Positions 2,576 to 17,826 of a DNA stretch of 64,000 bases are shown one piece after another. The position numbers and the translations under genes were made by a program. Source of the DNA: Lentisphaera profundi (GTDB lineage: Bacteria; Verrucomicrobiota; Lentisphaeria; Lentisphaerales; Lentisphaeraceae); the NCBI RefSeq assembly GCF_028728065.1, contig NZ_CP117811.1, positions 930,001-994,000 on the forward strand, written 5' to 3'. Position 1 is the first letter of the stretch; each line of letters starts with the position of its first letter. The notes beneath the pieces were generated by a model. The model was given only the letters and a program-made list of their open reading frames with translations. It did no database searches and was not told the origin of the DNA.

Positions 2576-5272
2576 TCAATCCTTGTGTAACTTCAATCCT
2601 ATGGGAATACTATCTCCTAGTACTAGGCTCTGGCTGGCGACATCTTCTTCGACGAGCTCATTGACTTGTTGAATGAAATGTTTTGCCGCATTGTTCTTAC
2701 TTAGAAACTTGGAGGCTTCAATTCTATTTTTCTCAGGCATATCTAAGGCATGATTAGCGGTTAAACTCATGATGCGACTAATACATAAAAAATGCATATT
2801 AGTTAGCTTTTTAGGATTGGTTTGCATGATGAGTGTAGCCAAAGAACTAATGCTTTTAGCCGGTAAGACTAAGTCTAAAGGGGCATAGACTGGACGACGA
2901 GCCGCCATGCGGGCAATCATCCAGAGCTCAACTTCATCCAAACGTGTGGCTCGCTCCATGAATTCACTTAAAACTTTTTTGCGAAACTTAATGGGACTCA
3001 ATTCTAAAGCACCTAAGCAACGCTTGAGTTCTCGAGATAATTGTGGGTTAAGACTTTTTTTAGAGCTGAGTTCACCATGAATTTTATGTGCCATTTGTTC
3101 CTGTCTACCACGGCTTAAGGCACCAGAGCAGCGACGCCATAGGGTCCACCATTCGACTTGGCTTGGGATATCAGTTTTATTTTGAACGCCTTTAAACCAG
3201 AAGGGCCAAAGTTTGTTAACGCGGAACTGATCATGGGAATTACCAAAGCCAGGTCGCATCATAAAGCCTAAGATATTATAATAACGGGCTTCGGTAGCAG
3301 CGTTCTTGCGAATGAGTTCAATATCTAATTCAAGCAATAAATCAGCGAGTCGGCGACAAAGAACCACAGACCATTCTTTTCTTTTGAGCTCCAAGTCATT
3401 TTCTAGATTTTTCATCAGTGAATTGAGGGCTTTTGCATCGTTTTTCACAAAGGCAGAATTGATTGATTCACTCGCTTTTTGAAGGAGTCTTTCATTCACT
3501 GTGATCGTCTCTTCTTGATCATCTGAATTCTCTTGCTCATGAAGCTGACGTAAATCAAAACGCAGCTGCCACTGATGATCAGTATCCAAAGCCTCTAGCC
3601 ACACTTCTAAAGAATTGCTTTCATTCACGGAGGATTTGAGTTTAACGCGAATATCTTGAACTTTTTTACCGTGAGAAATGGATGTGCTAAGTGGTGAAAG
3701 AACTGAAATGTCTTCTGCATCGCTATTGAGTATATCACCCGTTTTATCTAACAAGCGAGTCTCGGAGCTATACAGTGGAAAGCTAATGATGCTATTAGTT
3801 TTTAAAGTGAAGATCTTGTCACATACTTGAATACTATGCTCTTCGGTATCGCGAGGCATGATACAAATGAATTTGGATCCCTCTTGACTATCGATTTTGA
3901 GGAAATAAGAACGTGCAATACCACCTTTGACTTGAGTACCTAAGCCACTTCGACTTAAACCATAAGAACTCGCACCATGAGCCACGGCAATATCGAGACC
4001 CTTAGAGTTTAATGCATTAATGCTTTGACCCGACCAAGAATTGATTTGATTGATGACTTGATCTCTGAAACTCAGAGGAATCATGGTGCCACCATTGAAT
4101 AAAATATGCTCAGGGAATTTAATTTCACTCAGAGTAGATATTTGAGCGTCTCTACGTAAGAAAGAGAGTAGGTGACTGGTGATAGCGGGATCTCTTTCAT
4201 AAGGGAGGTCTAAGGTACGCAAACCGACTTTACGATCGGGTTCTGCGGCGTCAATTTGAATACTCGGAAAAAATCCTTGGTGAATAATATCGAGAATTTC
4301 TTGGCGATTAAATTTTATTAGGGACATGCCTTTGAGTAAAGAACTTCCGCCAGAATGAACCGATAAATTAATTTCATTGACTTGTTCATCGCTCAGGACT
4401 TTTTCTTTGGCGCGACGAGCTTCTTGAATAAGTGAACTCATTTCACGATTATTGAATTTGCGATTGGCGCGTTTTTGGGCTTCAAAAGCAATAGTTCTAT
4501 CAATATTATCACCACCTAAAAGCAGGTGGGGTCCTACACTAGTTCTTCTAAGTGCACCATCATCACTGACTTCGATCATGGAGAAATCGCTTGTGCCACC
4601 GCCAATATCAACGATGAGGACGCGTTCACCATTCTTTAAAGTGTCTTGCCATTCTTTATTAACTTGTAGCCAAGAATAAAAGGCGGCTAAGGGTTCTTCG
4701 AGCAGAGTTACTTTTTTAAAGCCGGCATTAAAGGCGGCTTTTAAACTTAATTCACGGGCAACCTCATCAAAAGAAGCAGGCACAGTGATTACTAACTCTT
4801 GGTCTTCTAGAATACAGGGCGAACCCTCTTTATCTTTTGTTTGACCAAAGCTTTTATTCCAGGCTTCACGTAAATGCTTGAGGTAGAAAGAAGAAGCGGC
4901 AACCGGACTAATTTTATGCTCTTCTTCAATTCCCCAGGGGAGGATCGCTTGTTCGCGATCAACGGCTTTGTGAACGAGCCATGATTTAGCTGAATGAATG
5001 AAGCGATCTGATTTTGCGCCGCCAAAGCGACGAGCGTATTCACCACAGACGTATTGGGGTTTCTTGTCCCAAGTTAAGGCTAATTGAGCCTGCTCATTTT
5101 CTTCACAGCGATAAAGAAAACTTGGTAAGTTATACTGCTGGTGTTTTTCACCATAAGCAGTGACTTGTTCAACTTCAAAGAGCTGGGGCTCGGTTGAGGT
5201 CTCTAAATCAACATAAGACAAGGCACAATTAGTAGTGCCTAGATCAATTCCTACAATGAAACGACTGCTCAT
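2576..5272 (-). CDS. Hsp70-family protein with long DUF3731-like C-terminal region
   Basis: An 898-residue DnaK relative. The actin-like ATPase domain shows the phosphate-1 loop DLGTTNCA (residues 10-17), the phosphate-2 loop DIGGGTSDF (about 220) and the adenosine motif LFNGGT (about 390). After residue ~520 it has no recognisable DnaK substrate-binding domain or EEVD-type tail. Instead there is a ~370-residue, charged, helical region ('GALSRGRQ', 'LWMIARMAARRPVYAPLD') resembling the DNA-K-related DUF3731 region found on long bacterial Hsp70s. It starts 2 bases after the stop of a second Hsp70 gene, so the two are co-transcribed and probably work together. No DnaJ or GrpE gene is nearby, so this is not the housekeeping dnaK. 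Clients are unknown. Confidence 0.85.
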   Translation of the reverse strand: MSSRFIVGIDLGTTNCALSYVDLETSTEPQLFEVEQVTAYGEKHQQYNLPSFLYRCEENEQAQLALTWDKKPQYVCGEYARRFGGAKSDRFIHSAKSWLVHKAVDREQAILPWGIEEEHKISPVAASSFYLKHLREAWNKSFGQTKDKEGSPCILEDQELVITVPASFDEVARELSLKAAFNAGFKKVTLLEEPLAAFYSWLQVNKEWQDTLKNGERVLIVDIGGGTSDFSMIEVSDDGALRRTSVGPHLLLGGDNIDRTIAFEAQKRANRKFNNREMSSLIQEARRAKEKVLSDEQVNEINLSVHSGGSSLLKGMSLIKFNRQEILDIIHQGFFPSIQIDAAEPDRKVGLRTLDLPYERDPAITSHLLSFLRRDAQISTLSEIKFPEHILFNGGTMIPLSFRDQVINQINSWSGQSINALNSKGLDIAVAHGASSYGLSRSGLGTQVKGGIARSYFLKIDSQEGSKFICIMPRDTEEHSIQVCDKIFTLKTNSIISFPLYSSETRLLDKTGDILNSDAEDISVLSPLSTSISHGKKVQDIRVKLKSSVNESNSLEVWLEALDTDHQWQLRFDLRQLHEQENSDDQEETITVNERLLQKASESINSAFVKNDAKALNSLMKNLENDLELKRKEWSVVLCRRLADLLLELDIELIRKNAATEARYYNILGFMMRPGFGNSHDQFRVNKLWPFWFKGVQNKTDIPSQVEWWTLWRRCSGALSRGRQEQMAHKIHGELSSKKSLNPQLSRELKRCLGALELSPIKFRKKVLSEFMERATRLDEVELWMIARMAARRPVYAPLDLVLPAKSISSLATLIMQTNPKKLTNMHFLCISRIMSLTANHALDMPEKNRIEASKFLSKNNAAKHFIQQVNELVEEDVASQSLVLGDSIPIGLKLHKD

Positions 5273-5274
5273 AC

Positions 5275-7041
5275 TTATACTTGTTTCCCTTCTTCACCAA
5301 GATCAAATTCTAGGCGCCATTTCTGTTCTCCAGATTTAGCTTCTCCCCAAACTTGGACAGTGCCAATCTCAGTAAAAATGGCTTTCATCGTAATCGGGAT
5401 AAGTCGTGGGGCTTCATCTTCTTCAAGGCTCAAGTTTTTATGCAAGGAAGGTAATTCATCGAGTTCGAGATCGGCATCTTCAATAATGCTTCCAAGCTCA
5501 TCTTCACTACGTGAATTAGTACAGAAGAAGCGGAATTGGCTATCTTCTCCCACAAGTAAGGCAAGGTCATCAATAGGAATATTAAAAGTCGTTCCATCTT
5601 CAGTTCCTTGAGGAATAACACAAATGGCATCCACGGGAGGAGCAAAACCGGGCATTGCTGGCATGGAAGATTCTAAACCAACATAATAAGAAAGTGCTGA
5701 ACCCGCTTTAATGCGGATAGAATTGCCTTGACGAACGAATGCATACCAAGCCGCACCTTTAGCGACGGCTAAGTCAGGGTTGGAGTCGGCTAATACATCA
5801 ATTTCTTCACCTGACCATGAATTAATAATCGAACTCACTCGTTCGCGTAATTGGCTCGCTTTAGTGACACCACCATTGAATAATACGGTCTTAGGCATTT
5901 TTTCATTATTTTTGATGAACTCAGCTAAGTGTCTAGAGATGGCGGCATCACTTTCGAAGTTGAGACCGAAGGAACGTAAGCCTGAACGCTCTTGGCGCTG
6001 AGCTGTATCATTTAAATCACACTCAGGTAAGAAGGCTTGGATAATGAATTGATCGACTTCTTCTTTTGTTAGTTCAGTTTTTAAACTACCACCAATGAGG
6101 CTCGAGCCAGTCCCCAAAATAGTGACATCGATTTTATCGAGAGATTCTGAACCTAAAATGCGTTCTTTTGCTTGGCGACATTGATGAACGAGTGAACTGA
6201 ATTGACGTGAATTTAAACGTTTACCCAATTTCTGTTGCATCGCATAGGCGAGGGTGAAATCCATGTTATCGCCACCGAGAAGCAAGTGATTGCCCACGGC
6301 TAAACGCTGTAATTCCATATTGCCATCTTTGTCATCTACACCAATGAGTGAAAAGTCTGTTGTACCACCACCAATATCAACAACTAAAACTGATGAGTCG
6401 GCACTTACTTTTTCACGCCAGTTTGATTCGTTTTCTTTTATCCAAGAATAAAAAGCCGCTTGGGGTTCTTCAAGAAGATTGGGGAAGATGCCACAGGCTT
6501 CTGCAGCCATCACCGTGAGTTCACGAGCTAAAGCATTGAAAGATGCAGGTACAGTGAGAACAACTTCTTGCTGATCAATATATTCATCCGGCGAAGTTGC
6601 CACTTGAGTATTCCAAGCATTCTTAAGGTGTCTAAGGTAACGAGTCATCGCCTCTAGGGGAGATAACTTTTTTTCGGCATCATCAATAGCAGGTAAAAAA
6701 TCACTCGTTGGATCTTGTCCTGCGGAACACAACCAAGATTTTGCCGATGAAATTACGCGAGAAGATTGCTCACTCGCTACTTTACGAGCATAAGAACCCA
6801 CGCAGTAAGAATTATCGTCTTGCCCATTGAAATCAAACTTGCCTGAGTTGACGCTATTATCATCAGGTAAATAAAGAAAAGAAGGGAGAGAATCTAGTGC
6901 TTCAATTTCTCCAGGAGCAATGAGTTGGGGGACTTTTAAAACTTGAATATTTTTATCGGGGTCGAGGGTGTCTACGTATGCAAGGGCTGAATTGGTTGTA
7001 CCCAAGTCAATGCCAATCATATAACGTTTCTTTTCAGACAT
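5275..7041 (-). CDS. Hsp70-family protein (short form), first gene of an Hsp70 pair
   Basis: A 588-residue Hsp70-like ATPase. It carries DLGTTNSA (residues 10-17), DIGGGTTDF (about 217-225) and LFNGGVT (about 385), so all nucleotide-binding elements are present. The C-terminal ~100 residues after the ATPase domain are acidic and beta-rich, ending in a strand-turn-strand segment. It is too short and too different for a full DnaK substrate-binding lid. A GGAG site lies about 8 bases upstream of the ATG. It is followed after 2 bases by the longer 898-residue paralogue. Tandem unequal Hsp70 genes occur in other bacteria; the division of labour between them is not known to me. Confidence 0.85.
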   Translation of the reverse strand: MSEKKRYMIGIDLGTTNSALAYVDTLDPDKNIQVLKVPQLIAPGEIEALDSLPSFLYLPDDNSVNSGKFDFNGQDDNSYCVGSYARKVASEQSSRVISSAKSWLCSAGQDPTSDFLPAIDDAEKKLSPLEAMTRYLRHLKNAWNTQVATSPDEYIDQQEVVLTVPASFNALARELTVMAAEACGIFPNLLEEPQAAFYSWIKENESNWREKVSADSSVLVVDIGGGTTDFSLIGVDDKDGNMELQRLAVGNHLLLGGDNMDFTLAYAMQQKLGKRLNSRQFSSLVHQCRQAKERILGSESLDKIDVTILGTGSSLIGGSLKTELTKEEVDQFIIQAFLPECDLNDTAQRQERSGLRSFGLNFESDAAISRHLAEFIKNNEKMPKTVLFNGGVTKASQLRERVSSIINSWSGEEIDVLADSNPDLAVAKGAAWYAFVRQGNSIRIKAGSALSYYVGLESSMPAMPGFAPPVDAICVIPQGTEDGTTFNIPIDDLALLVGEDSQFRFFCTNSRSEDELGSIIEDADLELDELPSLHKNLSLEEDEAPRLIPITMKAIFTEIGTVQVWGEAKSGEQKWRLEFDLGEEGKQV

Positions 7042-7400: not shown

Positions 7401-8132
7401 ATGAAAAATAAAAACAAAATTAAAAGCAACTTCACACTCATTGAAATTGCAGTCGTCCTTGTCGTGCTCGTAGCACTTGCAGGTCTCGTCGTTCCAAAAG
7501 CACTTGGTTACGCACAGCGTTCACACGGTGCAACTGGTGCGGGTAACATGGCGCAGCTTGAGGCCCAAATTAATAGATTTGAAATTGAGAAGTTTAGTAT
7601 GCCTGATAACTGGGATAATTTAATTGATCCTACAAGTTCTGGCGCAGATGCATATTCCACTGCTTTTGGTGTAGCAACTCTTCCCACCGATCAAGCTGAT
7701 GCACTGAACAGTGCGGGAATAACTATTGTACACGAATTATTTGATAAGGATGGTGTAGAAGCTGGTGCTCAATTAAGTACTTTTCAGGCCTCAGATGTAG
7801 ATTCTGACTCAGCTGTCGATAGTTCACTTGTTGTTGCGACAGTACCAGCAGCAGATGTACGGGTCGCCCTTGGGAATGCGAATAGTGCGACTGATACCTA
7901 TGTAGCTTTTGGCATTGGCGAAGCATTAACTGCTGTAGGGGTAACTATGACTGCAGTACCGTACGATTTTCCAGAAGGTGCAGAAAGACCAGAAGACAGC
8001 TATAGAAGATTTATTGCTATTTTTAATGTAAGTGGTGAAAAAGCTAAGTTAGCAGGCGTTGTAGCTAACGAAGACGGCGTGCTTCTTAATATTCAAGATC
8101 ACATAGCTGAATACTACGAAGCTACGGAATAA
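7401..8132 (+). CDS. type II secretion/type IV pilus pseudopilin (probable major pilin)
   Basis: A 243-residue class III (prepilin-type) protein: short basic leader (residues 1-10, five Lys), then FTLIEIAVVLVVLVALAG, with the conserved Glu at +5 of the mature protein and a single hydrophobic helix. The residue before the cleavage point is Asn10, not the usual Gly. The mature domain begins with an amphipathic helix (AQLEAQINRFEIEKF) like GspG-type major pseudopilins, followed by a variable acidic region. It is first in the operon, has an AGGAAA ribosome-binding site, and is followed by a strong stem-loop, as expected for the most abundant subunit. It should be processed by a prepilin peptidase encoded elsewhere. 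The GspG-like assignment is by position and shape. Confidence 0.8.
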   Translation: MKNKNKIKSNFTLIEIAVVLVVLVALAGLVVPKALGYAQRSHGATGAGNMAQLEAQINRFEIEKFSMPDNWDNLIDPTSSGADAYSTAFGVATLPTDQADALNSAGITIVHELFDKDGVEAGAQLSTFQASDVDSDSAVDSSLVVATVPAADVRVALGNANSATDTYVAFGIGEALTAVGVTMTAVPYDFPEGAERPEDSYRRFIAIFNVSGEKAKLAGVVANEDGVLLNIQDHIAEYYEATE

Positions 8133-8159
8133 TTTTTCTTAGTTTGTTTTAGTGGTAAT

Positions 8160-8199
8160 GAAAATTCCCCTTTTGAATTAAAAGGGGGATTTTCTCTTG
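8160..8199 (+). terminator. stem-loop after first pilin gene (partial terminator/attenuator)
   Basis: A 15-bp stem (8160-8174 with 8180-8194, one G-U wobble) closes a 5-base loop (GAATT); the 3' arm ends in TTTTC and is followed by TCTTG. It lies between the first and second pilin genes of one operon, so it may terminate only part of the transcription or protect the 3' end of the first message, raising the amount of the first pilin relative to the machinery genes. Confidence 0.7.
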
Positions 8200-8262
8200 T
8201 TAGCACGTCCTCATTAGCGAAGTTTCAGAAGTAGGTAAACCTCTATAGTTAACGAACAATTC

Positions 8263-9252
8263 ATGAATAAAAAACCTTTCACCCTTTTAGAGATGTCAGT
8301 CGTTTTACTGATTATTGTTCTGGTCGCTTCTTTTGCAGCATCTGTAGCTTCACCCATTTTAGAGCAAAGCATTGAAACACAATACAAAAAGAATGTGATC
8401 GCAATGGCGACTGCGATTGTTGGTGATAATTCTATTAGAGATTACGATGGCAGCGCCATCCCCAATGGCTACCTAAATGACATGGGGTCTTTTCCCAGTA
8501 ATATTAATGATCTCTGGAATGCTCCTAGCGACTCCAGCAAACGTTATCGCAAAGAGGAATTCACTATAAATGGCGTAGATGGGCATTTGTACGGTGGCTG
8601 GAATGGTCCCTACTACGAAGCGGTCAATGAAAACCTGCTCAACAGCCTCATCCTAGAGAGGGGAGACTATGATTCCATCAGTATTACGGATTCAAATTCT
8701 GATAATGATGATATAAAACTCCACGCCAAGGGCTACTCCGAATCAGAAGTCTTTGAATACGGCGAGCTACATTTCTATCCAAGAACAATTTCACTTTCAG
8801 GTATCCCCAGTGAATTCACGGCCAAAGTTACCTACGTCTATTTTTTAGATGGCATCCTTCAAGCTGTAGAACAAGACATTAGTAATAGTGCCGATACATC
8901 CGTAGATCTGCCGAAAGGACTGTGTGCTTTTTATGCCCAATTAATAACTGACCACGAAATCCTAGAGACTTTAAGCAGTCCTCCTATTGGTCCAAGTGAT
9001 GGCGACACCTATTTAATTTCATCTAGTGGTGCAAGTGGCGATTTCAGTGGTGAAGAGAATAGTATCGCTACTTGGAATGGCAGTAGCTATGATTTTACAA
9101 GGCCAAGTGACCAAGACAGTCTTTATGATATTAATGAACAAAAACACTACCTATTCAAGGACAGTACCTGGGAAGAAAAACAAGTGGATGGTACCTCAAC
9201 TCCAAGAATCATAAAAACCATAAAAACTGATATCTTACTGGAGTTTGAGTGA
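8263..9252 (+). CDS. second prepilin-type pseudopilin
   Basis: A 329-residue protein with a very short leader MNKKP followed by FTLLEMSVVLLIIVLVAS: conserved Glu at mature position 5 and an N-terminal hydrophobic helix. Pro5 occupies the -1 position where prepilin peptidases normally need Gly. The mature domain is larger than a major pseudopilin, Ser/Asp-rich, and contains a W/Y-rich segment (DLYDINEQKHYLFKDSTWEE near 290-310). It is probably a minor pseudopilin (GspH/I/J/K-like role). The next gene begins 4 bases after the stop. The exact minor-pilin class cannot be assigned from sequence. Confidence 0.75.
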   Translation: MNKKPFTLLEMSVVLLIIVLVASFAASVASPILEQSIETQYKKNVIAMATAIVGDNSIRDYDGSAIPNGYLNDMGSFPSNINDLWNAPSDSSKRYRKEEFTINGVDGHLYGGWNGPYYEAVNENLLNSLILERGDYDSISITDSNSDNDDIKLHAKGYSESEVFEYGELHFYPRTISLSGIPSEFTAKVTYVYFLDGILQAVEQDISNSADTSVDLPKGLCAFYAQLITDHEILETLSSPPIGPSDGDTYLISSSGASGDFSGEENSIATWNGSSYDFTRPSDQDSLYDINEQKHYLFKDSTWEEKQVDGTSTPRIIKTIKTDILLEFE

Positions 9253-9256
9253 TTAT

Positions 9257-10507
9257 ATGACCAAGTACCTACTACTCCATATTTCAGACAAATTATATTT
9301 TCTTAACTTCAGTTCAAAAAACCAAGAAGTTCAGGACTTTGTCCTCAAGGACAATAATCATGAAGAAGTCAGTCAGTTATTAGAGGCTTTCTGTTCACAA
9401 CTCACCTCTAATTTTGAGATCTATTTATTCTCAGATAAACTGACTCTACACACTCTAGATTTAAGCAAGCAAACACCCACGACGAATAAATCTCTAATAC
9501 AACAATTCCTCTTATTTGAGCTCGAAAATGTGGTTGATATCCTTCCGGATAATCCCGTGCTTATATTTCATAAAGAGGCGGAGCACACTTATAACTGTTT
9601 GCTCACAGAGGAAAACTTTGTTCATGAACTAAAAAACGTCTGTTTACAAGCTGATGGCAAGCTTGCCTACTTAGGTCATCCAGCAGGTTTTTTCGCTAGT
9701 CTCTATACAAATAACAGCGTAGAGATTTTTGAAAATACGGTTCATTGTCAAAGCTCAAAATCGAAAAATTCTTATCATTTTAGCAGTTCATTAACAAGTG
9801 AGTATCAAGCTGTTCAACAATACTTGGTCAAGAATTCAATGAAGAGCCCTACGATCTACAACTTAGCTAAAAGAGATATCATTCCCTTGGAAGGGAATAT
9901 TTCTGAAGTGAAATTCGATGAAATCAAAACTAAAGACTTAATCAAAGCTTTAAAAAATAAACTGAGAACTTCTCCCGTTCTCAATTTTAAAAGTACGCCA
10001 AAAAATCTCAAGAAATCCTTTCCTTTATTAACGTCTTTTTTACTATCTGTGAGCCTGTTCGCATACTGCTTATTTTCCATCTATGATAGCAATCAAAATT
10101 TAGAAAATCTGATCACCAAAAATAAAATCAAAGTCAAGGATTTTAAGGCTGAAAAAGTAAGCTTTAAAATGCAAATAGAAAAAATCCCCGACCTCGAACA
10201 AGAACGGGCAAAATTGAAAAACAAGGAAATCGTCCTCAAGAATGTCAATTTCTGGCCTGATTTACTAGAGTGTATGGCTGAATCTATAGATGACTCTTCC
10301 CAATTAACTCATGTAAATAGCGCACAAAAAGATGTGGTCACTATACAGGGGATTACACTCAATGTCTTAAAAATCCAAGAGTTCATTAAAGGCCTAGAAG
10401 CTGACAGTAGCCTAGACGTCATTGTCTCGGAAAAAACAATTAGTCAAGAAATGATCAATAATCATAAGCTTTGGAGATTTAAGATCAGCCTTGGAAGAAA
10501 ATTGTGA
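9257..10507 (+). CDS. PilM/PilN- or GspL-like inner-membrane assembly protein
   Basis: The ATG at 9257 (MTKYLLLHIS) is preferred over an upstream in-frame TTG at 9245 that would overlap the previous gene. About 416 residues. The N-terminal ~250 residues are soluble and beta/alpha-rich, like the actin-like cytoplasmic part of PilM/GspL. One membrane helix follows near residues 255-278 (LTSFLLSVSLFAYCLF). A coiled-coil stretch and a small ferredoxin-like domain (VTIQGITLNVLKIQEFIKGLE) complete it, the usual PilN/GspL periplasmic layout. It therefore looks like a PilM-PilN fusion, which is what GspL is. It sits between the pseudopilins and a PilO/GspM-like gene. It likely links the cytoplasmic ATPase to the periplasmic platform. 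Confidence 0.65.
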   Translation: MTKYLLLHISDKLYFLNFSSKNQEVQDFVLKDNNHEEVSQLLEAFCSQLTSNFEIYLFSDKLTLHTLDLSKQTPTTNKSLIQQFLLFELENVVDILPDNPVLIFHKEAEHTYNCLLTEENFVHELKNVCLQADGKLAYLGHPAGFFASLYTNNSVEIFENTVHCQSSKSKNSYHFSSSLTSEYQAVQQYLVKNSMKSPTIYNLAKRDIIPLEGNISEVKFDEIKTKDLIKALKNKLRTSPVLNFKSTPKNLKKSFPLLTSFLLSVSLFAYCLFSIYDSNQNLENLITKNKIKVKDFKAEKVSFKMQIEKIPDLEQERAKLKNKEIVLKNVNFWPDLLECMAESIDDSSQLTHVNSAQKDVVTIQGITLNVLKIQEFIKGLEADSSLDVIVSEKTISQEMINNHKLWRFKISLGRKL

Positions 10508-11019
10508 AAAAACATCTTCTAAAAGCCCTTATTGCCCCGGTGTTTTTCTATATATTATACGTCAACCTTAAAGCCTTTGTATTTAATTATGAAGCTAGGC
10601 AGTCTTATCTCAACAAAAAAATTAATAAGTCCAATAAAGAGCTAGAGGATTTAAAAACTGCGCTTAGCACTCTGAAAAAAGATAAAAAATTAAAGCTCTA
10701 TCAAGAACTCAACAAAAACTTAAGTGAATTAAAAAAATATGATGAAGTTCAAAAAGATGAAAAACGTAAAGAGATCAATATTTACCAACTTTTCCAAGAG
10801 TATCAGCTCAGCTTATATTCCGAAAAATTAGTAAAAAATAAGTCATTAAATAAGGATTTAAAAAAGCTGACGCAGTTCACTCTATCAGGTGATTACCATA
10901 AGCTCATCAAAATGCTTCGGGCTTGCGCAGGCAGTCAATTTATTCCGGTGAATTTTTCTTTAAAAGCAGAAGAAAATGCCAGCACAAAATATACAATTTC
11001 AATTTGGAAACAAGAATGA
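10504..11019 (+). CDS. PilO/GspM-like coiled-coil membrane protein
   Basis: A 171-residue protein starting at GTG 10504, overlapping the previous stop by 4 bases. One N-terminal membrane helix (residues 5-27), then a Lys/Glu/Leu-rich coiled coil (about 30-90), then a small domain (LTQFTLSGDYHKLIKMLRACAG) of the ferredoxin-like type found at the C-terminus of PilO and GspM. Position after the PilM/N-like gene and before the ATPases supports this role as an alignment-subcomplex partner. Sequence similarity alone is weak, so the assignment rests on topology and gene order. Confidence 0.6.
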   Translation: MKKHLLKALIAPVFFYILYVNLKAFVFNYEARQSYLNKKINKSNKELEDLKTALSTLKKDKKLKLYQELNKNLSELKKYDEVQKDEKRKEINIYQLFQEYQLSLYSEKLVKNKSLNKDLKKLTQFTLSGDYHKLIKMLRACAGSQFIPVNFSLKAEENASTKYTISIWKQE

Positions 11020-12074
11020 TTAAATTAGAAGCTTTATTGGCTAGATGTATTGAGGTGGGAGCTTCTGATCTTCATGTAAAATCTGATCAAAGTCCGAGAT
11101 TTCGTCTGCTAGGAAAACTCGTGCCTCTCGCGGGCACATGCGGGATTTCCAAAGAGTCCATTTTAGATGGCATGAAAAATTTTATCGAGCCCCCCAAATT
11201 TGAAAAATTTGCTCAGCGAGGTGCCATAGATGGCTCCTTTCTTTATAATCAAAAACGTTTTAGGTTCAACCTTTTTAAACAATCAAATTCCCTAAGTCTT
11301 TCCTTGAGACTACTTTCTGATAAGATCAATGAATTACAGTCGCTTGGTGTGCCTGATCTCCTCTATAAAGTTTGTGAAATGAAAAATGGACTTGTGATTG
11401 TAAGTGGCTCTACGGGTTCGGGTAAATCGACGACTTTATCCGCTTTAATAGAAAGAATAAACTCTACGCAGAATAGGCATATAATCACTATTGAAGAGCC
11501 AGTTGAATATATATACGAGAGTAAGATGTCTCTGATTAATCAACGTGAAGTGGGCATAGATACCCCCAGTTTTCATGCGGCTCTAGTTGACTCTCTAAGA
11601 CAAGATCCAGACGTTATCCTGATTGGTGAGATCCGAGAGATCGACACGATTAAAACAGCCATAACTGCAGCCGAGACAGGACATTTGGTTTTTGCCACAG
11701 TGCACTCCGAAGATACTACCAGTGCCATAGAACGTTTGATTTCTGTATTTCCCGCCGATGAACAAGGCTCCGTGAGAAGGCAATTATCCTTAAGTCTTAG
11801 AGCTATTATCTCTCAAAGTTTAGTGATTGCAGATGGCAAAAAAGCCGAGAAAGGAACACGTGTACCTGTATGCGAAATACTATTTGCTAACAATGCAATT
11901 AAGAACCAAATTGCAACAGGCAAGACTCGGCAAATTTATTCCTCTATAGAAATGGCTCATCAAGAAGGTATGCAAACCTTTGAAAGACACCTTTCTGAGC
12001 TTTTGAAAAAGGGTATTTTGAGCCGTGAAACCGTGATGCTTTTGGCCAATAAACAAGATTCTCTAATCGTTTAA
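11016..12074 (+). CDS. pilT: PilT-like secretion/pilus ATPase
   Basis: The start is taken as ATG 11016, which overlaps the previous stop (ATGA); reading further upstream in frame only shadows the PilO-like gene. It gives 352 residues. The N-terminal domain (ASDLHVKSDQSPRFRLLG) is PAS-like and typical of PilT. The RecA-like domain has Walker A GSTGSGKST (about 131-139), Asp box TIEEPVEY, Walker B DVILIGEIRE (about 197), and His box HLVFATVHSED. PilT hexamers power pilus retraction in type IV pili. Here the gene lies next to a GspE/PilB-like assembly ATPase, so the system may have both extension and retraction motors, or PilT may serve a different function. Confidence 0.85.
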   Translation: MIKLEALLARCIEVGASDLHVKSDQSPRFRLLGKLVPLAGTCGISKESILDGMKNFIEPPKFEKFAQRGAIDGSFLYNQKRFRFNLFKQSNSLSLSLRLLSDKINELQSLGVPDLLYKVCEMKNGLVIVSGSTGSGKSTTLSALIERINSTQNRHIITIEEPVEYIYESKMSLINQREVGIDTPSFHAALVDSLRQDPDVILIGEIREIDTIKTAITAAETGHLVFATVHSEDTTSAIERLISVFPADEQGSVRRQLSLSLRAIISQSLVIADGKKAEKGTRVPVCEILFANNAIKNQIATGKTRQIYSSIEMAHQEGMQTFERHLSELLKKGILSRETVMLLANKQDSLIV

Positions 12075-12081
12075 TAGAGAT

Positions 12082-13524
12082 GTGTATATTGTGATCGACT
12101 TAGATAAAATAACTTTCAACCCCGCTTTAGTAGCTATGCTTCCGTCAAATATCGCTTTAAAGAAGCTGCTACTACCCTGTACGGAAATAAACGGTATAAT
12201 ATATGTCATAGCAGGAGAACCGGAAAGCCATCAGCCAAGTGATCTTAAAAGGTATTTTGGCAAAGACGTCAAACTTGAAAAAGCTGACCCGAAAAAACTC
12301 AAAGAAAAAATTAAATTACACTATCGGAGTTCAAACAAAGTCAGTTTAGAAAATGATCAAAATGAAGTTATTCGCTTAACGGATGAAATTATTTTTACTG
12401 CCGTAAGTAAATCAGCTTCGGATATTCACATCAACCCCAAGGAAGATAAAGTTTTAATTCGTTTTCGGGTGAGTGGGCAATTGGAAACCTATAAAACTAT
12501 ACCTATACATTCCTACAACGGCTTAATTTCACGCATAAAAATTTTAGCGGAAATGAATATTGCGGAGAAACGCTCACCTCAAGATGGCAAGCTGACTTAC
12601 AAAGTACCTGGGACTCATCAAAAAGTAGATATTCGAGCGGCGTCAATCCCTTCAATTAATGGCGAAAAAATGACCTTGAGACTTTTGGGGATAAACTCAG
12701 ATGCTCTGACGCTTGATAAAATTGGTATGTCAAAACAGCATTTAGCTATTTATCATGAAGAAATCCAACGTGACAATGGTTTAATTTTGATCAACGGCGC
12801 TACTGGCTCAGGTAAATCCACCAGTCTCTACGCGTCGCTTAGACATATATTGAAGAGTAAAGATGTGAATATTATAACTGTCGAAGATCCCGTTGAGTAT
12901 CAGGTAGATAATGTCATTCAAGTTAACGTTGATGAATCGGATAAAGTATCATTTCCCTCTGCATTAAAAAGCATACTTAGACATGATCCAGATGTAATCA
13001 TGATAGGGGAAATTAGAGACGCCGAAACAGCTGGAATTGCCATCAAATCGAGTTTGACGGGCCACTTGGTGCTCTCGAGTCTTCATGCCAATTCTGCCTC
13101 AGCTGCAGTAGTAAGGTTGGCTGATATAGGTGTCGAACCCTATATGATAGCTTCGACACTGCGAGTCAGTATTGCCCAGAAGCTCGTCAAAAAGTTATGT
13201 CAAAACTGTTGTACAAGCACTGAGTTGACAGAGCAGCAAGCTTTACTCATTAAGCGCGAAGATTTAGCCGGTACAAAAGTCGCAGTTAAAAAGGGTTGCC
13301 TTTATTGCGGAGGTTTAGGCTACTTGGATAGGATGCCTATACTCGAAGTGATACAAATTGACAATAATTTCAAAGCCCTCATTCACTCTGAACTCAATGA
13401 TGAAAATCTAAGAAAGGAAATGCAGCGCCAAGATATTCCTTCTTTAGTTGATGACGCCATTAGCAAGATGCAAGAAGGTTTAATTGACTTTCAAGAGTGT
13501 TATAAAATTGTGAGTACGATTTAA
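12082..13524 (+). CDS. gspE: GspE/PilB-family assembly ATPase
   Basis: About 480 residues from GTG 12082; another GTG at 12091 is better placed relative to the AGAG at 12076-12079 and would shorten it by 3 residues. The N-terminal region (1-95) is a degenerate T2SSE-N-like domain. The ATPase core has SASDIHINP, Walker A GATGSGKST (about 239-247), TVEDPVEYQ, Walker B DVIMIGEIRDAET (about 301) and HLVLSSLHANS. A zinc-binding tetracysteine region follows: CQNC near 373-376 and CLYC further on, characteristic of GspE/PilB and absent from PilT. It hydrolyses ATP at the cytoplasmic face to assemble the pseudopilus. Followed after 1 base by the GspF gene. Confidence 0.88.
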   Translation: MYIVIDLDKITFNPALVAMLPSNIALKKLLLPCTEINGIIYVIAGEPESHQPSDLKRYFGKDVKLEKADPKKLKEKIKLHYRSSNKVSLENDQNEVIRLTDEIIFTAVSKSASDIHINPKEDKVLIRFRVSGQLETYKTIPIHSYNGLISRIKILAEMNIAEKRSPQDGKLTYKVPGTHQKVDIRAASIPSINGEKMTLRLLGINSDALTLDKIGMSKQHLAIYHEEIQRDNGLILINGATGSGKSTSLYASLRHILKSKDVNIITVEDPVEYQVDNVIQVNVDESDKVSFPSALKSILRHDPDVIMIGEIRDAETAGIAIKSSLTGHLVLSSLHANSASAAVVRLADIGVEPYMIASTLRVSIAQKLVKKLCQNCCTSTELTEQQALLIKREDLAGTKVAVKKGCLYCGGLGYLDRMPILEVIQIDNNFKALIHSELNDENLRKEMQRQDIPSLVDDAISKMQEGLIDFQECYKIVSTI

Positions 13525-13525
13525 G

Positions 13526-14722
13526 ATGATTGAATTTGATTATATTGCTTTAGATTCTTTTGGTGAAAATCAGGAAGGTAGGTTGGAAGCTGAGAATTTT
13601 TTGGAAGCCTCAAAAATTTTAAAAGCACGTAAGTGGATTATAAGATCATTAGACGAAGCCCAATACGAAGTCTCAATCTTCACTTACTTGAACCCCATGA
13701 CTTACTTTTTACGCAGTCGTGACTTCGAGGTCGCCTTTGCCCAACTCTCCACGTTGATGAGTTCAGGAGTGAATTTATCCTCTGCCTTAAAAACGATGTC
13801 CGCAATCTCTTTAAAACAGGCAGGAAGAACTTTGTGGAAAGAGGTTTATTCACAAGTTCAAACAGGCAAGAGCTTATCAGAATCTTTGAAGAGTCATCCT
13901 CAAATTAAAAAATCTCTTTTCGCAAATCTAATAAAAATTGGTGAAGAAACGGGTGAACTTGACCACTTATTAATGACTATTGCTGTAGGCATGGAGAGAA
14001 ATCGAATTATTAAGAGTAAAATTCTTACCGCTCTCTTATATCCTATGTTTGTTTTCATCATTGCTTTAATTGCAGCCGGAGTGGCTGTCTTTTACCTGAT
14101 CCCCAAATTAAAAGTTATGATTGCAGCCATGGGTCGAGATTTGCATCCCGCTACTCAGGCTCTGATTGACTTTGCCGATTTTTTACAAAGATATTCAATA
14201 CATTTTTTATTGTTGATTTTAATTTTAGCTATCACCCTTATTAGCACTTATCTCAATAAAAATGGCAGAGTCTTTCTTGATCGTATGACCTTAAGAGTCC
14301 CAGTCATTGGCAACATGTTCCGCGTTTACTTTTCTGCTGAATTTGCCCGGAATTTTGCGCTGCTTATTGGGAGTGGGGTTAAACTCACAGAATCACTTCA
14401 GCATTGTACCGCAACTATTTGGAATACATACCTTAAGAATGTGCTAAAACGGGCGAGGAACAATATTATAAATGGCGCGCCTTTAACAGAGACGCTTTCC
14501 TGCCGATATGCCTTTAGCCCCTTACTTATCAGTATGGTGAGCGTGGGGGAAAAAACAGGATCTATTGATAATCTTTTGGAAGACCAGGCCAAATACCATT
14601 ACGAAATTTTAGACAAGTACATCAATCAATTCAGTGCATTAATTAGCTTTGTAATGATCCTACTGGTAGCTGGGACCATAGCCTTTGTTTTTGCCGCAAT
14701 ATTACTAACCTATTTCTCTTGA
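13526..14722 (+). CDS. gspF: GspF/PilC inner-membrane platform protein
   Basis: A 398-residue polytopic protein with the two repeated GspF domains: the first contains FAQLSTLMSSGVNLSSALKT (about 69-88) and GEETGELDHLL; the second repeats the pattern as FARNFALLIGSGVKLTESL and GEKTGSIDNLL. Membrane segments lie near 172-193, 228-248 and at the C-terminus (ISFVMILLVAGTIAFVFAAIL). This is the standard platform protein that contacts the ATPase and pseudopilins. It starts 1 base after gspE. Length and domain order are normal. Confidence 0.9.
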   Translation: MIEFDYIALDSFGENQEGRLEAENFLEASKILKARKWIIRSLDEAQYEVSIFTYLNPMTYFLRSRDFEVAFAQLSTLMSSGVNLSSALKTMSAISLKQAGRTLWKEVYSQVQTGKSLSESLKSHPQIKKSLFANLIKIGEETGELDHLLMTIAVGMERNRIIKSKILTALLYPMFVFIIALIAAGVAVFYLIPKLKVMIAAMGRDLHPATQALIDFADFLQRYSIHFLLLILILAITLISTYLNKNGRVFLDRMTLRVPVIGNMFRVYFSAEFARNFALLIGSGVKLTESLQHCTATIWNTYLKNVLKRARNNIINGAPLTETLSCRYAFSPLLISMVSVGEKTGSIDNLLEDQAKYHYEILDKYINQFSALISFVMILLVAGTIAFVFAAILLTYFS

Positions 14723-15129: not shown

Positions 15130-16833
15130 ATGAAAAAACAATTTACCTTAATCTTTTTCTTACTTAGTTTTCTTAATGCAAAAAATATGGACAACATTGA
15201 AGTCATAGATATTCAAGACAGTACATTACCTTCCTTAATTAGGCTGATCTCCGAAAACAATGACATCAATATCGTAACTTCCATTAAAGCTAGAAATACT
15301 AAAATCAGCACTTACTTAAAAAACATTCATCCGATCGTGGCTCTTGAGGAAATTTGCAGCTCACACAATTTGTGGTTACAAAAAGATCCAATAAAAAACA
15401 TTTACCGAATTTACTCGCTTGACGAGTACAAAAAGAGCGTGCTTAAATTTTCCGAAGAGATTAAGGTTTACGACCTGAAATACCCCAACAGTAAAACCAT
15501 TTCTAAATCAATATTTGAACTTTTTCCTGCTCGAGTCCTCTACTATGACTCCGATACCGATGAACTAGATGACGAAATTGATGAAATTGAAACGAGGCTT
15601 AAAAAAATGATGATTTTTGAAGAACGTCAGAATACCTCAGAGACCAATAACTTAGCAGGAGCCATAAGTAATTCCCGAAATAATAATGATAATAATAATA
15701 ATGATGATAATGAAAATTCATCAAATGGCGGTCCGGTAAAAGTTACTCTCCCTGAAAAAGAAGGGCATGAAACCTTTGACTTAACTTCAGAAATCATCCA
15801 TCAAATTAATACGGCTGACAGTATTGAAGAAATTCGTGATATCATCAGCAATCAAGGTGTTTTTATCAATTCACGTATTTATTTATCGTCCATTGAAACT
15901 AAAAACCAAATGATCCTACGAACAGGCGATAGAGAAGCGATGGAAAAGATTGATCAACTTATCAAAAAACTTGACACCCCAAGTCCGATGGTGCTTCTGG
16001 AAATGAAAATTCTTGCTGTAAGGCTGGATGATAACTTTGAATCAGCTTTTGACCTTGCCTATAATGACGGTACAACAGGAATCACATTAGGCTCTGGACT
16101 CATTCAGCAAGCTGGGGCATTTAATTACTCATATATTAATGACAAATTTGCTGCCGCTCTTACATTATTGGAGGAGGACTCCAAAGTTAGAACCCTAGCT
16201 ACTCCAGTTATTCTTACTCTCAATAGAGAAGTCAGCAAATTCTTTAACGGCAATGCTGCTGTCCCAATATTAACTAATTTTCAAGGAGAAGCTGGGACCA
16301 CCGTAACTGGGGATGGTACTGTTGTTTCAAATGTTCCAAGTCCTCAATACGATAACCGTGACATAGGATCTACTTTAAAAGTATCTCCCACCATTAATGC
16401 TGACAGAACTGTTCAACTTCAGATTTCGTCCATTGAATCTGAAGTTGATACGAATAGTGCCACTGTCCTTATAGCAAGTGGTGATACATATATTACTCAA
16501 GCAGTTGATACTGAAAAAAGGCGCTCATTTACCGGTACGGTCTTAGCTTATGACGGTAAAATGATTGCTGTAGGTGGAATCATCAAAGAAACAGAAATTG
16601 AAATCGAATCCGGTGTTCCTATTTTAAGAGATATTCCTTTACTTGATTATTTCTTTGAAGATAAAAAAATCGTCAAGCAAAGAGAAGAGATTCTTCTTCT
16701 CATTAAACCTTACATAATTTACAGTGAGGAGGATCATGAAAAACTTAGTGAAGAACTCATCAATCGAGTCAGTGAACATCCAAATGCTCAAGGACAAAAA
16801 GATAAACTTAATCCATTATTAGAAAAAGATTAA
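15130..16833 (+). CDS. gspD: secretin (GspD/PilQ family outer-membrane channel)
   Basis: A 567-residue protein with a signal peptide (residues 1-18, LIFFLLSFLNA). It has an N-terminal STN-like domain (EVIDIQDSTLPSLIRLISE), a secretin N-domain (SRIYLSSIETKNQMILRTG near 250-280), and the secretin barrel with LEMKILAVRLDD, VRTLATPVILTLNRE, IGSTLKVSPTIN and the signature GVPILRDIPLLDYFF near 495-509. A low-complexity Asn/Asp linker encoded by AAT/GAT triplets (about residues 183-197) joins two N-domains. No lipoprotein box. It would form the outer-membrane exit gate of the system encoded just upstream and is the last gene of the operon. Confidence 0.9.
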   Translation: MKKQFTLIFFLLSFLNAKNMDNIEVIDIQDSTLPSLIRLISENNDINIVTSIKARNTKISTYLKNIHPIVALEEICSSHNLWLQKDPIKNIYRIYSLDEYKKSVLKFSEEIKVYDLKYPNSKTISKSIFELFPARVLYYDSDTDELDDEIDEIETRLKKMMIFEERQNTSETNNLAGAISNSRNNNDNNNNDDNENSSNGGPVKVTLPEKEGHETFDLTSEIIHQINTADSIEEIRDIISNQGVFINSRIYLSSIETKNQMILRTGDREAMEKIDQLIKKLDTPSPMVLLEMKILAVRLDDNFESAFDLAYNDGTTGITLGSGLIQQAGAFNYSYINDKFAAALTLLEEDSKVRTLATPVILTLNREVSKFFNGNAAVPILTNFQGEAGTTVTGDGTVVSNVPSPQYDNRDIGSTLKVSPTINADRTVQLQISSIESEVDTNSATVLIASGDTYITQAVDTEKRRSFTGTVLAYDGKMIAVGGIIKETEIEIESGVPILRDIPLLDYFFEDKKIVKQREEILLLIKPYIIYSEEDHEKLSEELINRVSEHPNAQGQKDKLNPLLEKD

Positions 16834-17145: not shown

Positions 17146-17826
17146 CTACCAATCTTCTACTGCATCTAAAGAATTCATGAAGACGTAACGGTTTAATTGA
17201 TTGACATGACCATCTAAAAATGAAAAGAGAAAGTTTACATCATCACCATGAACCGCAGTTCCTAAATGCTGCTCACTATAACCCAATGCGGCAGAGCTGT
17301 CTTTACCACGACGATTAGCTTCTTTTATCCTTTCACCCAAAGCTATTTTCTTACTGGGCTCATTGACTGCATTTAGACTAACAGAAGTTCCATTATTTTT
17401 AGCAATACCGCCTCGATTATTATTTAACCAACCATTGATTGAGTAAGAACGTGTGAGGTCAGTTCCATTGCCACGTACTATGTCATCCGCAGGACAAACC
17501 CATCGTGTATCTCCAGCTGCTCGTAGATCAGCCTCAGTTAAAACCACTTCATCACGATCCTCATCAGAGAGGTAGTCACTAAGCATGTCATCCCAAGTCT
17601 TATTTCCTGATGCACTAAAGACGTAATAATCATTATTGTCCGCAGTATACATTTCAAACTGTAAGTAAATCTGACGGATTTGACTTTTGCAAACGGCTTT
17701 ACGCGCCTTGTCCCGTCCTTTACCCAAAGCAGGTAGGATTAATGATGCTAAAATACCGATTATTGAGATGACGACTAATAACTCAATGAGTGTAAAGCCT
17801 TTTAGATTTTTTTTTCTCTTATACAT
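17146..17826 (-). CDS. prepilin-type protein with H-x-DG C-terminal motif
   Basis: A 226-residue protein of the pseudopilin type abundant in Planctomycetes, Verrucomicrobia and Lentisphaerae. The leader MYKRKKNLKG is followed by FTLIELLVVISIIGILASLILPAL: canonical Gly at -1 and Glu at +5, then RDKARKAVCKSQIRQIY. Near the C-terminus 'VHGDDVNFLFSFLDGHV' is the family's His...Asp-Gly motif, with 11 rather than the usual 9 residues between His and Asp-Gly. It is transcribed alone, away from the kinase. Such proteins are often encoded in many copies and their substrates are unknown. Unlike the two pilins of the operon at 7.4-9.2 kb, this one has a normal cleavage site. Confidence 0.85.
   Translation of the reverse strand: MYKRKKNLKGFTLIELLVVISIIGILASLILPALGKGRDKARKAVCKSQIRQIYLQFEMYTADNNDYYVFSASGNKTWDDMLSDYLSDEDRDEVVLTEADLRAAGDTRWVCPADDIVRGNGTDLTRSYSINGWLNNNRGGIAKNNGTSVSLNAVNEPSKKIALGERIKEANRRGKDSSAALGYSEQHLGTAVHGDDVNFLFSFLDGHVNQLNRYVFMNSLDAVEDW

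What the first reader, a model, noticed from the sequence alone, without database searches (positions are those of the whole stretch)
7401..8300. Operon pseudopilins lack Gly at the -1 processing position (Asn and Pro instead)
The two pilins of the secretion operon read SN|FTLIE and KP|FTLLE, while the lone pseudopilin at 17.1-17.8 kb has the canonical KG|FTLIE. Prepilin peptidases of model organisms require Gly (occasionally Ala) at -1, and Pro is particularly unexpected. Either this lineage has a peptidase with relaxed specificity, which fits the frequent non-Gly FTLIELL leaders I recall in Lentisphaerae, or there are two processing routes. No prepilin peptidase gene is in the window.
Basis: partly seen in the sequence, partly recalled or inferred. 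Interest (0 to 1): 0.55.

Follow-up and report, generated by a model that had tools for sequence, protein, structure and literature searches.

The report
Pilin leaders without the glycine rule
In one class of bacteria, the Lentisphaeria, pilus-type proteins have largely lost the glycine-or-alanine that related bacteria place just before the pilin cutting site, although the cutting enzyme is still there, so either the enzyme has become tolerant or these pilins are used uncut.

Summary
In detail: the operon pilins read KSN|FTLIE and KKP|FTLLE, and the lone pseudopilin reads LKG|FTLIE. The exception is the Gly one. Of 142 prepilin N-termini in this genome, 3 have Gly and 1 Ala at -1; Lys leads (65), and Gly/Ala is no commoner at -1 than elsewhere in the leader. 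The trait is class-wide with a sharp edge. By DNA pattern, 880 of 6046 N-termini in 98 same-class genomes have Gly/Ala, against 667 of 675 in 190 other genomes of the phylum. In 50 named genomes it is 346 of 346 outside Lentisphaeria and 19 of 176 in the four of this clade.

A prepilin peptidase (A24; FlaK-like fold in a relative) is found in 98 of 98 class genomes, including 16 with no Gly/Ala leader by this pattern. Near-identical pilins differ at -1 (K/K/Q/G; P/A/S). Many class peptidases vary at positions flanking GxGD that Gly/Ala-obeying lineages mostly keep, but no single residue explains the trait.

Best reading: one PilD-type enzyme that no longer reads -1 and cuts before Phe+1. Main rival: the leader is kept. 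N-terminal mass spectrometry or a cleavage assay would decide.

The parts
7401..8132 (+). operon pilin 1 (GspG/ComGC-like N-terminus); Asn at -1 (codon 7428-7430), Phe+1 at 7431, Glu+5
   Evidence: weak NCBIfam GspG match 5.1e-9, below its cut-off; orthologues have N and Q at -1
8263..9252 (+). operon pilin 2 with a DUF2793 domain in its C-terminal part; Pro at -1 (codon 8275-8277), Phe+1 at 8278, Glu+5
   Evidence: orthologues in G006 and G010 have A and S at -1
9245..10507 (+). PilN-type assembly protein
   Evidence: PF05137 4.3e-6, over its cut-off
10504..11019 (+). small membrane-anchored protein of the operon (PilO-like by position only)
   Evidence: no Pfam match; position and size only
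11016..12074 (+). PilT/PilU-family ATPase (ATG at 11016 taken as start; the mechanical ORF opens at 10923)
   Evidence: TIGR01420 388 bits, cut-off 319
12082..13524 (+). PilB/GspE-type extension ATPase with a weak MshEN match
   Evidence: PF00437 4e-112
13526..14722 (+). PilC/GspF platform protein
   Evidence: PF00482 2e-46
15130..16833 (+). secretin (GspD/MshL-like)
   Evidence: PF00263 8e-32
17146..17826 (-). lone pseudopilin with the rare Gly at -1 (codon 17799-17797)
   Evidence: PF07963 over cut-off; one of 3 Gly among 142

Best explanation
In the class Lentisphaeria the class III (prepilin) signal peptide has lost its -1 Gly/Ala requirement. Shown here: the loss is class-wide with a sharp phylogenetic edge, while Phe+1 and Glu+5 and a four-Cys, two-Asp prepilin peptidase (PilD/GspO, family A24) persist. 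Inferred: this one peptidase still cuts just before Phe+1 but has an S1 site that accepts Lys, Arg, Asn, Ser, Gln, Thr, His, Pro or Tyr, taking its register from the mature FTxxE helix and the basic leader rather than from -1. The window's Asn and Pro leaders are then ordinary substrates of this enzyme, encoded elsewhere in the genome.
For: (1) Own genome: -1 is K65 R15 S14 N13 Q6 P6 T6 H5 G3 Y3 L2 C2 A1 F1 of 142; +1 F 140; +5 E 141. (2) Class edge: Gly/Ala 880 of 6046 (98 class genomes) against 667 of 675 (190 other genomes of the phylum); Gly alone 496 of 9042 in 148 class genomes (transcription checked). (3) 50 named genomes: 346 of 346 in 39 genomes outside the clade, 19 of 176 in the 4 inside. 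(4) Peptidase found in 98 of 98 class genomes; 16 of the 98 have no Gly/Ala leader by this pattern, and in 14 of these 16 I read the ORF with both Asp motifs. (5) One pseudopilin, 70-90% identical over its length in four class genomes, keeps NRKK before -1 and has K, Q, K, G at -1; operon pilin 2 has P/A/S and pilin 1 N/N/Q in three genomes. (6) Lineages that keep Gly/Ala have it in front of the same FTLIELLVVIAII core although the rest of their leaders varies (20 read). (7) Peptidase column Met302 is kept in 14 of 46 class against 39 of 41 (phylum) and 22 of 24 (other phyla) Gly/Ala-abiding sequences; Leu309 16 of 46 against 34 of 41 and 23 of 24; Trp as x of GxGD 22 of 46 against 0 of 66.
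Against: No cleavage was measured. Seven of 46 class peptidases keep Met302, Leu/Phe309 and Gly201 (G046, G034, G007, G032, G048, G028, G008), as does the named L227, yet their genomes break the rule, so those changes are not needed for it. The stronger loss of conservation in the catalytic domain than in the N-domain is not class-specific: Gly/Ala-abiding other phyla show nearly the same contrast. The 14-column signature is not clean: L268, whose genome G383 has 2 of 2 Gly/Ala, scores 12.8, above L226 at 12.6. The class shares one ancestry, so enzyme and leader changes are one correlated event. Some class genomes still have many Gly/Ala leaders (G034 25 of 48; G130 81 of 205).
Confidence: 0.6

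Rival explanations
1. Most Lentisphaeria prepilins are never cleaved: the basic leader (often only MKK) stays on as the cytoplasmic end of a membrane-anchored protein, and the peptidase serves the minority with Gly/Ala.
For: Leaders are short: 78 of 142 own leaders are 5 residues or fewer, 29 are 3, median 5 against 11.5 in 20 read from two Gly/Ala genomes. Composition at -1 looks like positive-inside flank: K/R 80 of 142, acidic 0 of 142. Three of 30 read in G051 open as MN|F or MY|F by nearest ATG.
Against: 16 of 98 class genomes have no Gly/Ala leader by the pattern and still have the peptidase. Glu+5 is kept in 141 of 142; by recalled pilus biology it pairs with the free amine of a processed Phe+1. 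The search model favours Glu+5, so that count is partly ascertained. FS-type N-termini are not counted by the pattern and might hold Gly/Ala.
Confidence: 0.22
2. A different, unrecognised protease processes the non-Gly leaders (for example one cutting after Lys/Arg).
For: K+R are 80 of 142 at -1 in the own genome.
Against: The -1 set also holds Asn, Ser, Gln, Pro, Thr, His and Tyr; in G051 the 30 read are K9 Y9 N8 S2 R1 Q1. Orthologues swap K, Q, G or P, A, S, which does not fit a basic-specific enzyme. No second A24 ORF turned up in the own genome. Other protease families were not searched.
Confidence: 0.1
3. The -1 change is drift with little functional meaning: most expanded pseudopilins are dispensable, so leaders decay, and only a few Gly/Ala ones matter.
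For: Class repertoires are large (9042 N-termini in 148 genomes against 675 in 190).
Against: Equally expanded families elsewhere keep the rule exactly: 91 of 91 (G342), 43 of 43 (G347), 28 of 28 (G338). Class genomes with 1 to 9 N-termini break it too. The core operon pilins of this window break it. The mature cores stay intact.
Confidence: 0.06
4. Artefact of start-site or frame error.
For: None found.
Against: -1 is fixed by the frame, not by the start codon; 148 of 148 class genomes carry the pattern and each has mostly non-Gly copies where 5 or more are present; in several own-genome ORFs a stop codon lies directly before MKK|F.
Confidence: 0.02

Closest known systems
Type IV prepilins / T2SS pseudopilins with class III signal peptides (PF07963, TIGR02532)
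   Same: Short basic leader, Phe+1, Thr/Ser+2, Glu+5, hydrophobic helix; encoded beside PilB/PilT/PilC/secretin genes
   Different: -1 is mostly Lys and other non-Gly/Ala residues; TIGR02532 is itself named for GFxxxE, pilin 2 falls just below its cut-off and pilin 1 does not match it
Bacterial prepilin peptidase PilD/GspO (A24; PF06750 + PF01478)
   Same: N-terminal four-Cys domain, D...P and GxGD motifs; fold of the relative L227 matches FlaK 3s0x (Z 12.2, rmsd 3.2 over 148)
   Different: In many class members the positions flanking GxGD depart from AMGxGDVKL (for example GWGD, Tyr/Phe309); the own enzyme also has a long insert between the two Asp that drops it to 26.4 bits, just under the Pfam cut-off of 26.5
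Archaeal class III peptidases FlaK/PibD/EppA
   Same: Same fold; some are known to tolerate other -1 residues (recalled, not from a call)
   Different: Lack the bacterial Cys domain (recalled); the archaeal tolerance is recalled as small residues, not Lys, Tyr or Pro

Membership tests
Type IV prepilin / class III signal peptide | Gly (or Ala) at -1 | tested here: not met
   Window pilins have N and P; own genome 4 of 142 G/A; class 880 of 6046
Type IV prepilin / class III signal peptide | Phe (hydrophobic) at +1 and Glu at +5 followed by a hydrophobic helix | tested here: met
   F 140 and E 141 of 142; partly ascertained by the search model
Type IV prepilin / class III signal peptide | cleavage at -1/+1 and N-methylation | not testable with these tools
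   needs N-terminal mass spectrometry
PilD/GspO prepilin peptidase (A24) | two catalytic Asp (D...P and GxGD) | tested here: met
   55 of 57 class ORFs read carry both; L141 is cut by the contig end and the L114 ORF ends before GxGD
PilD/GspO prepilin peptidase (A24) | N-terminal four-Cys domain | tested here: met
   PF06750 2.8e-33 in own enzyme; all four Cys columns 48 of 48 in the class alignment
PilD/GspO prepilin peptidase (A24) | GxGD aspartic protease fold | tested here: met
   AlphaFold model of relative L227 (pLDDT 89) against FlaK, Z 12.2, next best 5.3; own enzyme not modelled
PilD/GspO prepilin peptidase (A24) | specificity for Gly/Ala at -1 | not testable with these tools
   needs an assay
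Type IV pilus operon | PilB, PilT, PilC, PilN-type protein, secretin and pilins together | tested here: met
   PilM/PilO/PilP not identified

The most novel reading that the evidence does not exclude
Lentisphaeria assemble pilus-like structures from pilins whose leader is never removed: the class III signal peptide has been reduced to a short basic stub and cleavage, otherwise held to be obligatory, has become optional.
Probability: 0.2. Interest if true: 0.85.

Novelty: new variant of a known kind. Interest (0 to 1): 0.62.

Why it matters
Gly/Ala at -1 is treated as a defining feature of prepilin cleavage sites and is built into motif models. Here a class with dozens to over two hundred such N-termini per genome lacks it, while its sister lineages obey it at 98.8 to 100%. 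If the enzyme is relaxed, its pocket can be compared with strict relatives to locate the -1 determinant of prepilin peptidases, long unresolved for want of a natural counter-example. If cleavage is skipped, a basic tenet of type IV pilus assembly fails in one class. Either way, gene callers that demand GFxxxE under-annotate these pilins.

Tried and rejected
Two processing routes: rejected for lack of a distinct Gly class and of a second A24 ORF. A large peptidase insert as the cause: rejected; Gly/Ala-abiding f27 peptidases such as L116, L120 and L162 are as long and many class enzymes of 276-320 residues lack it. Catalytic-domain-specific loss of conservation: looked significant (33 of 33 against 21 of 33, p 1.4e-4) but other phyla that obey the rule show nearly the same contrast, 0.914/0.724 against 0.918/0.665, so it is not used as evidence. 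Phe132, Leu162, Ala301, Val322: not significantly more variable in the class than in other phyla, or only marginally (Val322 p 0.026). The 14-column signature as a cross-phylum predictor: fails on L268; an all-column score does set the four rule-breakers apart (76 or more, next 34) but that is largely ancestry. Solved homologues by sequence: no credible match. Literature: (8 searches of the held open library) gave listings in which no title or abstract beginning addressed -1 in Lentisphaeria; passages only were read in PMC6617341 (lists Victivallis as a best hit of a lipase) and PMC4390842 (archaeal peptidase specificity). This is no proof that nothing is in print.

Full report
OBSERVATION. 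The two pilins of the operon at 7.4-9.3 kb read MKNKNKIKSN|FTLIE and MNKKP|FTLLE, and the lone pseudopilin at 17146-17826(-) reads MYKRKKNLKG|FTLIE. The residue at -1 is set by the frame, so the choice of start cannot hide a Gly. The operon encodes, after the pilins, a PilN-type protein, a small protein, a PilT-family ATPase over its curated cut-off, a PilB/GspE ATPase, a PilC/GspF protein and a secretin: closer to a type IV pilus operon than to a plain secretion operon.

OWN GENOME. A PF07963 search of the genome (5.46 Mb, two contigs) gave 143 matches (E up to 10; 150 of 157 first-look candidates scored). I fetched all (plus the loci) and read the N-termini. One match (C1:1957227, LTLLETI) had no prepilin core and was dropped. 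Of the other 142 (118 distinct leader strings), -1 is K65, R15, S14, N13, Q6, P6, T6, H5, G3, Y3, L2, C2, A1, F1. The window's 'canonical' pseudopilin is thus one of three. Most matches aligned only from Phe onward, so a Gly at -1 was not needed for detection; if anything the profile favours Gly. Gly/Ala at -1 (4 of 142) is as rare as elsewhere in the leaders (18 of 757, p 0.77); K/R are enriched (80 of 142 against 323 of 757), acidic residues are absent (0 of 142 against 22 of 757) and hydrophobic ones depleted (8 of 142 against 140 of 757), as expected beside a membrane.

LINEAGE. A DNA pattern for FT[LF]IExLV-type starts, with and without a Gly or Ala codon in front, was counted in whole genomes; the reversed control pattern gave almost no hits. 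In 148 genomes of the same class 496 of 9042 N-termini have Gly. In 98 of them (85% complete or more) Gly is 330, Ala 550, neither 5166 of 6046; in 190 genomes of the phylum outside the class Gly is 484, Ala 183, neither 8 of 675. Among genomes with 5 or more copies the lowest Gly/Ala share outside is 6 of 7, the highest inside 25 of 48. For named genomes I took 50 of the 80 peptidase loci: in 39 genomes outside the clade Gly/Ala is 346 of 346 (Verrucomicrobiota, Planctomycetota, Cyanobacteriota, Acidobacteriota and others); the four exceptions are an Oligosphaeraceae (7 of 72), a Lentisphaeria (9 of 81), a Victivallaceae (2 of 15) and an 'uncultured bacterium' (1 of 8); the other 7 had no match. 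In the peptidase tree these four lie with the class, whose 50 rows are one side of a branch (98/95). A record titled 'Lentisphaerae bacterium' (L229; 4 of 4 Gly/Ala) has a peptidase identical to that of G297, outside the class. The pattern misses FS-type starts: it finds 94 of the own genome's 142.

WHAT VARIES. A small pseudopilin, 70-90% identical over its length in G002, G007, G014 and G020, keeps NRKK upstream and FTLIELL downstream and has K, Q, K, G at -1. Operon pilin 2 has P (own), A (G006), S (G010); pilin 1 N, N, Q. In G051 the pattern finds 68 N-termini, none with Gly or Ala; the 30 read are K9 Y9 N8 S2 R1 Q1. By contrast 20 N-termini read from two Gly/Ala genomes have the same FTLIE[LM]LVVIAI-type core and varied leaders but always Gly or Ala at -1; these were picked from Gly and Ala hits, so the always is by choice, and only the varied leaders are informative. 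Own leaders are short (median 5 against 11.5).

PEPTIDASE. The own genome has one A24 ORF, 384 residues with a long insert, PF06750 clear and PF01478 at 26.4 bits, just below its cut-off. Relatives are found in 98 of 98 class genomes and 180 of 190 others. Of 57 class ORFs read, 55 have both Asp motifs; L141 is cut by a contig end and the L114 ORF stops before GxGD. 16 of 98 class genomes have no Gly/Ala leader by the pattern; for 14 of them I read the peptidase, and both motifs are present (G027 and G035 were not fetched). A model of L227 (pLDDT 89) matches FlaK at Z 12.2, next 5.3.

IS THE ENZYME CHANGED? Against 25 Gly/Ala-abiding enzymes of other phyla, class enzymes (46) have specifically lost Met302 (14 of 46 kept against 22 of 24), Leu309 (16 of 46 against 23 of 24) and Gly201 (21 of 46 against 24 of 25), beside weaker changes; 22 of 46 have GWGD, seen in 0 of 66 Gly/Ala-abiding enzymes. 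Positions 302, 304 and 309 flank catalytic Asp306. Against a simple story: 7 of 46 keep 302, 309 and 201 and still break the rule; the loss of catalytic-domain conservation as a whole is not class-specific; and G134 (49 of 141 Gly) and its sister G117 (4 of 127) have nearly the same enzyme. The last point fits an enzyme indifferent to -1.

VERDICT. Shown: a class-wide, sharply bounded loss of Gly/Ala at -1 with the peptidase kept. Inferred: one PilD that cuts before Phe+1 without reading -1 (0.6). Not excluded: uncleaved leaders (about 0.2). The two window pilins are normal members of this lineage. In 8 paper searches of the held library I saw no report of it, judging by titles and abstract beginnings.

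Noticed in passing
window 8263-9252 (+), residues 236-303: Pilin 2 carries a DUF2793 domain (PF10983, 1e-10, over cut-off) in its C-terminal part, an unusual fusion for a pilin.
   Followed up: no
window 2576-7041 (-): Two adjacent Hsp70-like ORFs (898 and 588 aa, by eye) divergently placed beside the pilus operon.
   Followed up: no
L105 1501-2652 (-) = C1:1125090-1126241: The own prepilin peptidase has a long insert between its two catalytic Asp and falls just under the Pfam A24 cut-off; no NCBIfam model hit it, so annotation may miss it. Similar long forms occur in f27 genomes outside the class.
   Followed up: partly
G134 against G117 (same genus): Gly share at -1 is 49 of 141 in one and 4 of 127 in the other with near-identical peptidases: a recent rise in Gly without change of enzyme.
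   Followed up: partly
L229 (contig JAAZBB010000002.1): Titled 'Lentisphaerae bacterium', but its peptidase is identical to that of G297 outside the class and its leaders obey Gly/Ala (4 of 4); the label is probably out of date.
   Followed up: partly
190 non-class genomes: Eight N-termini outside the class (in G186, G225, G247, G255, G259, G265, G295, G313) have neither Gly nor Ala; not read individually.
   Followed up: no
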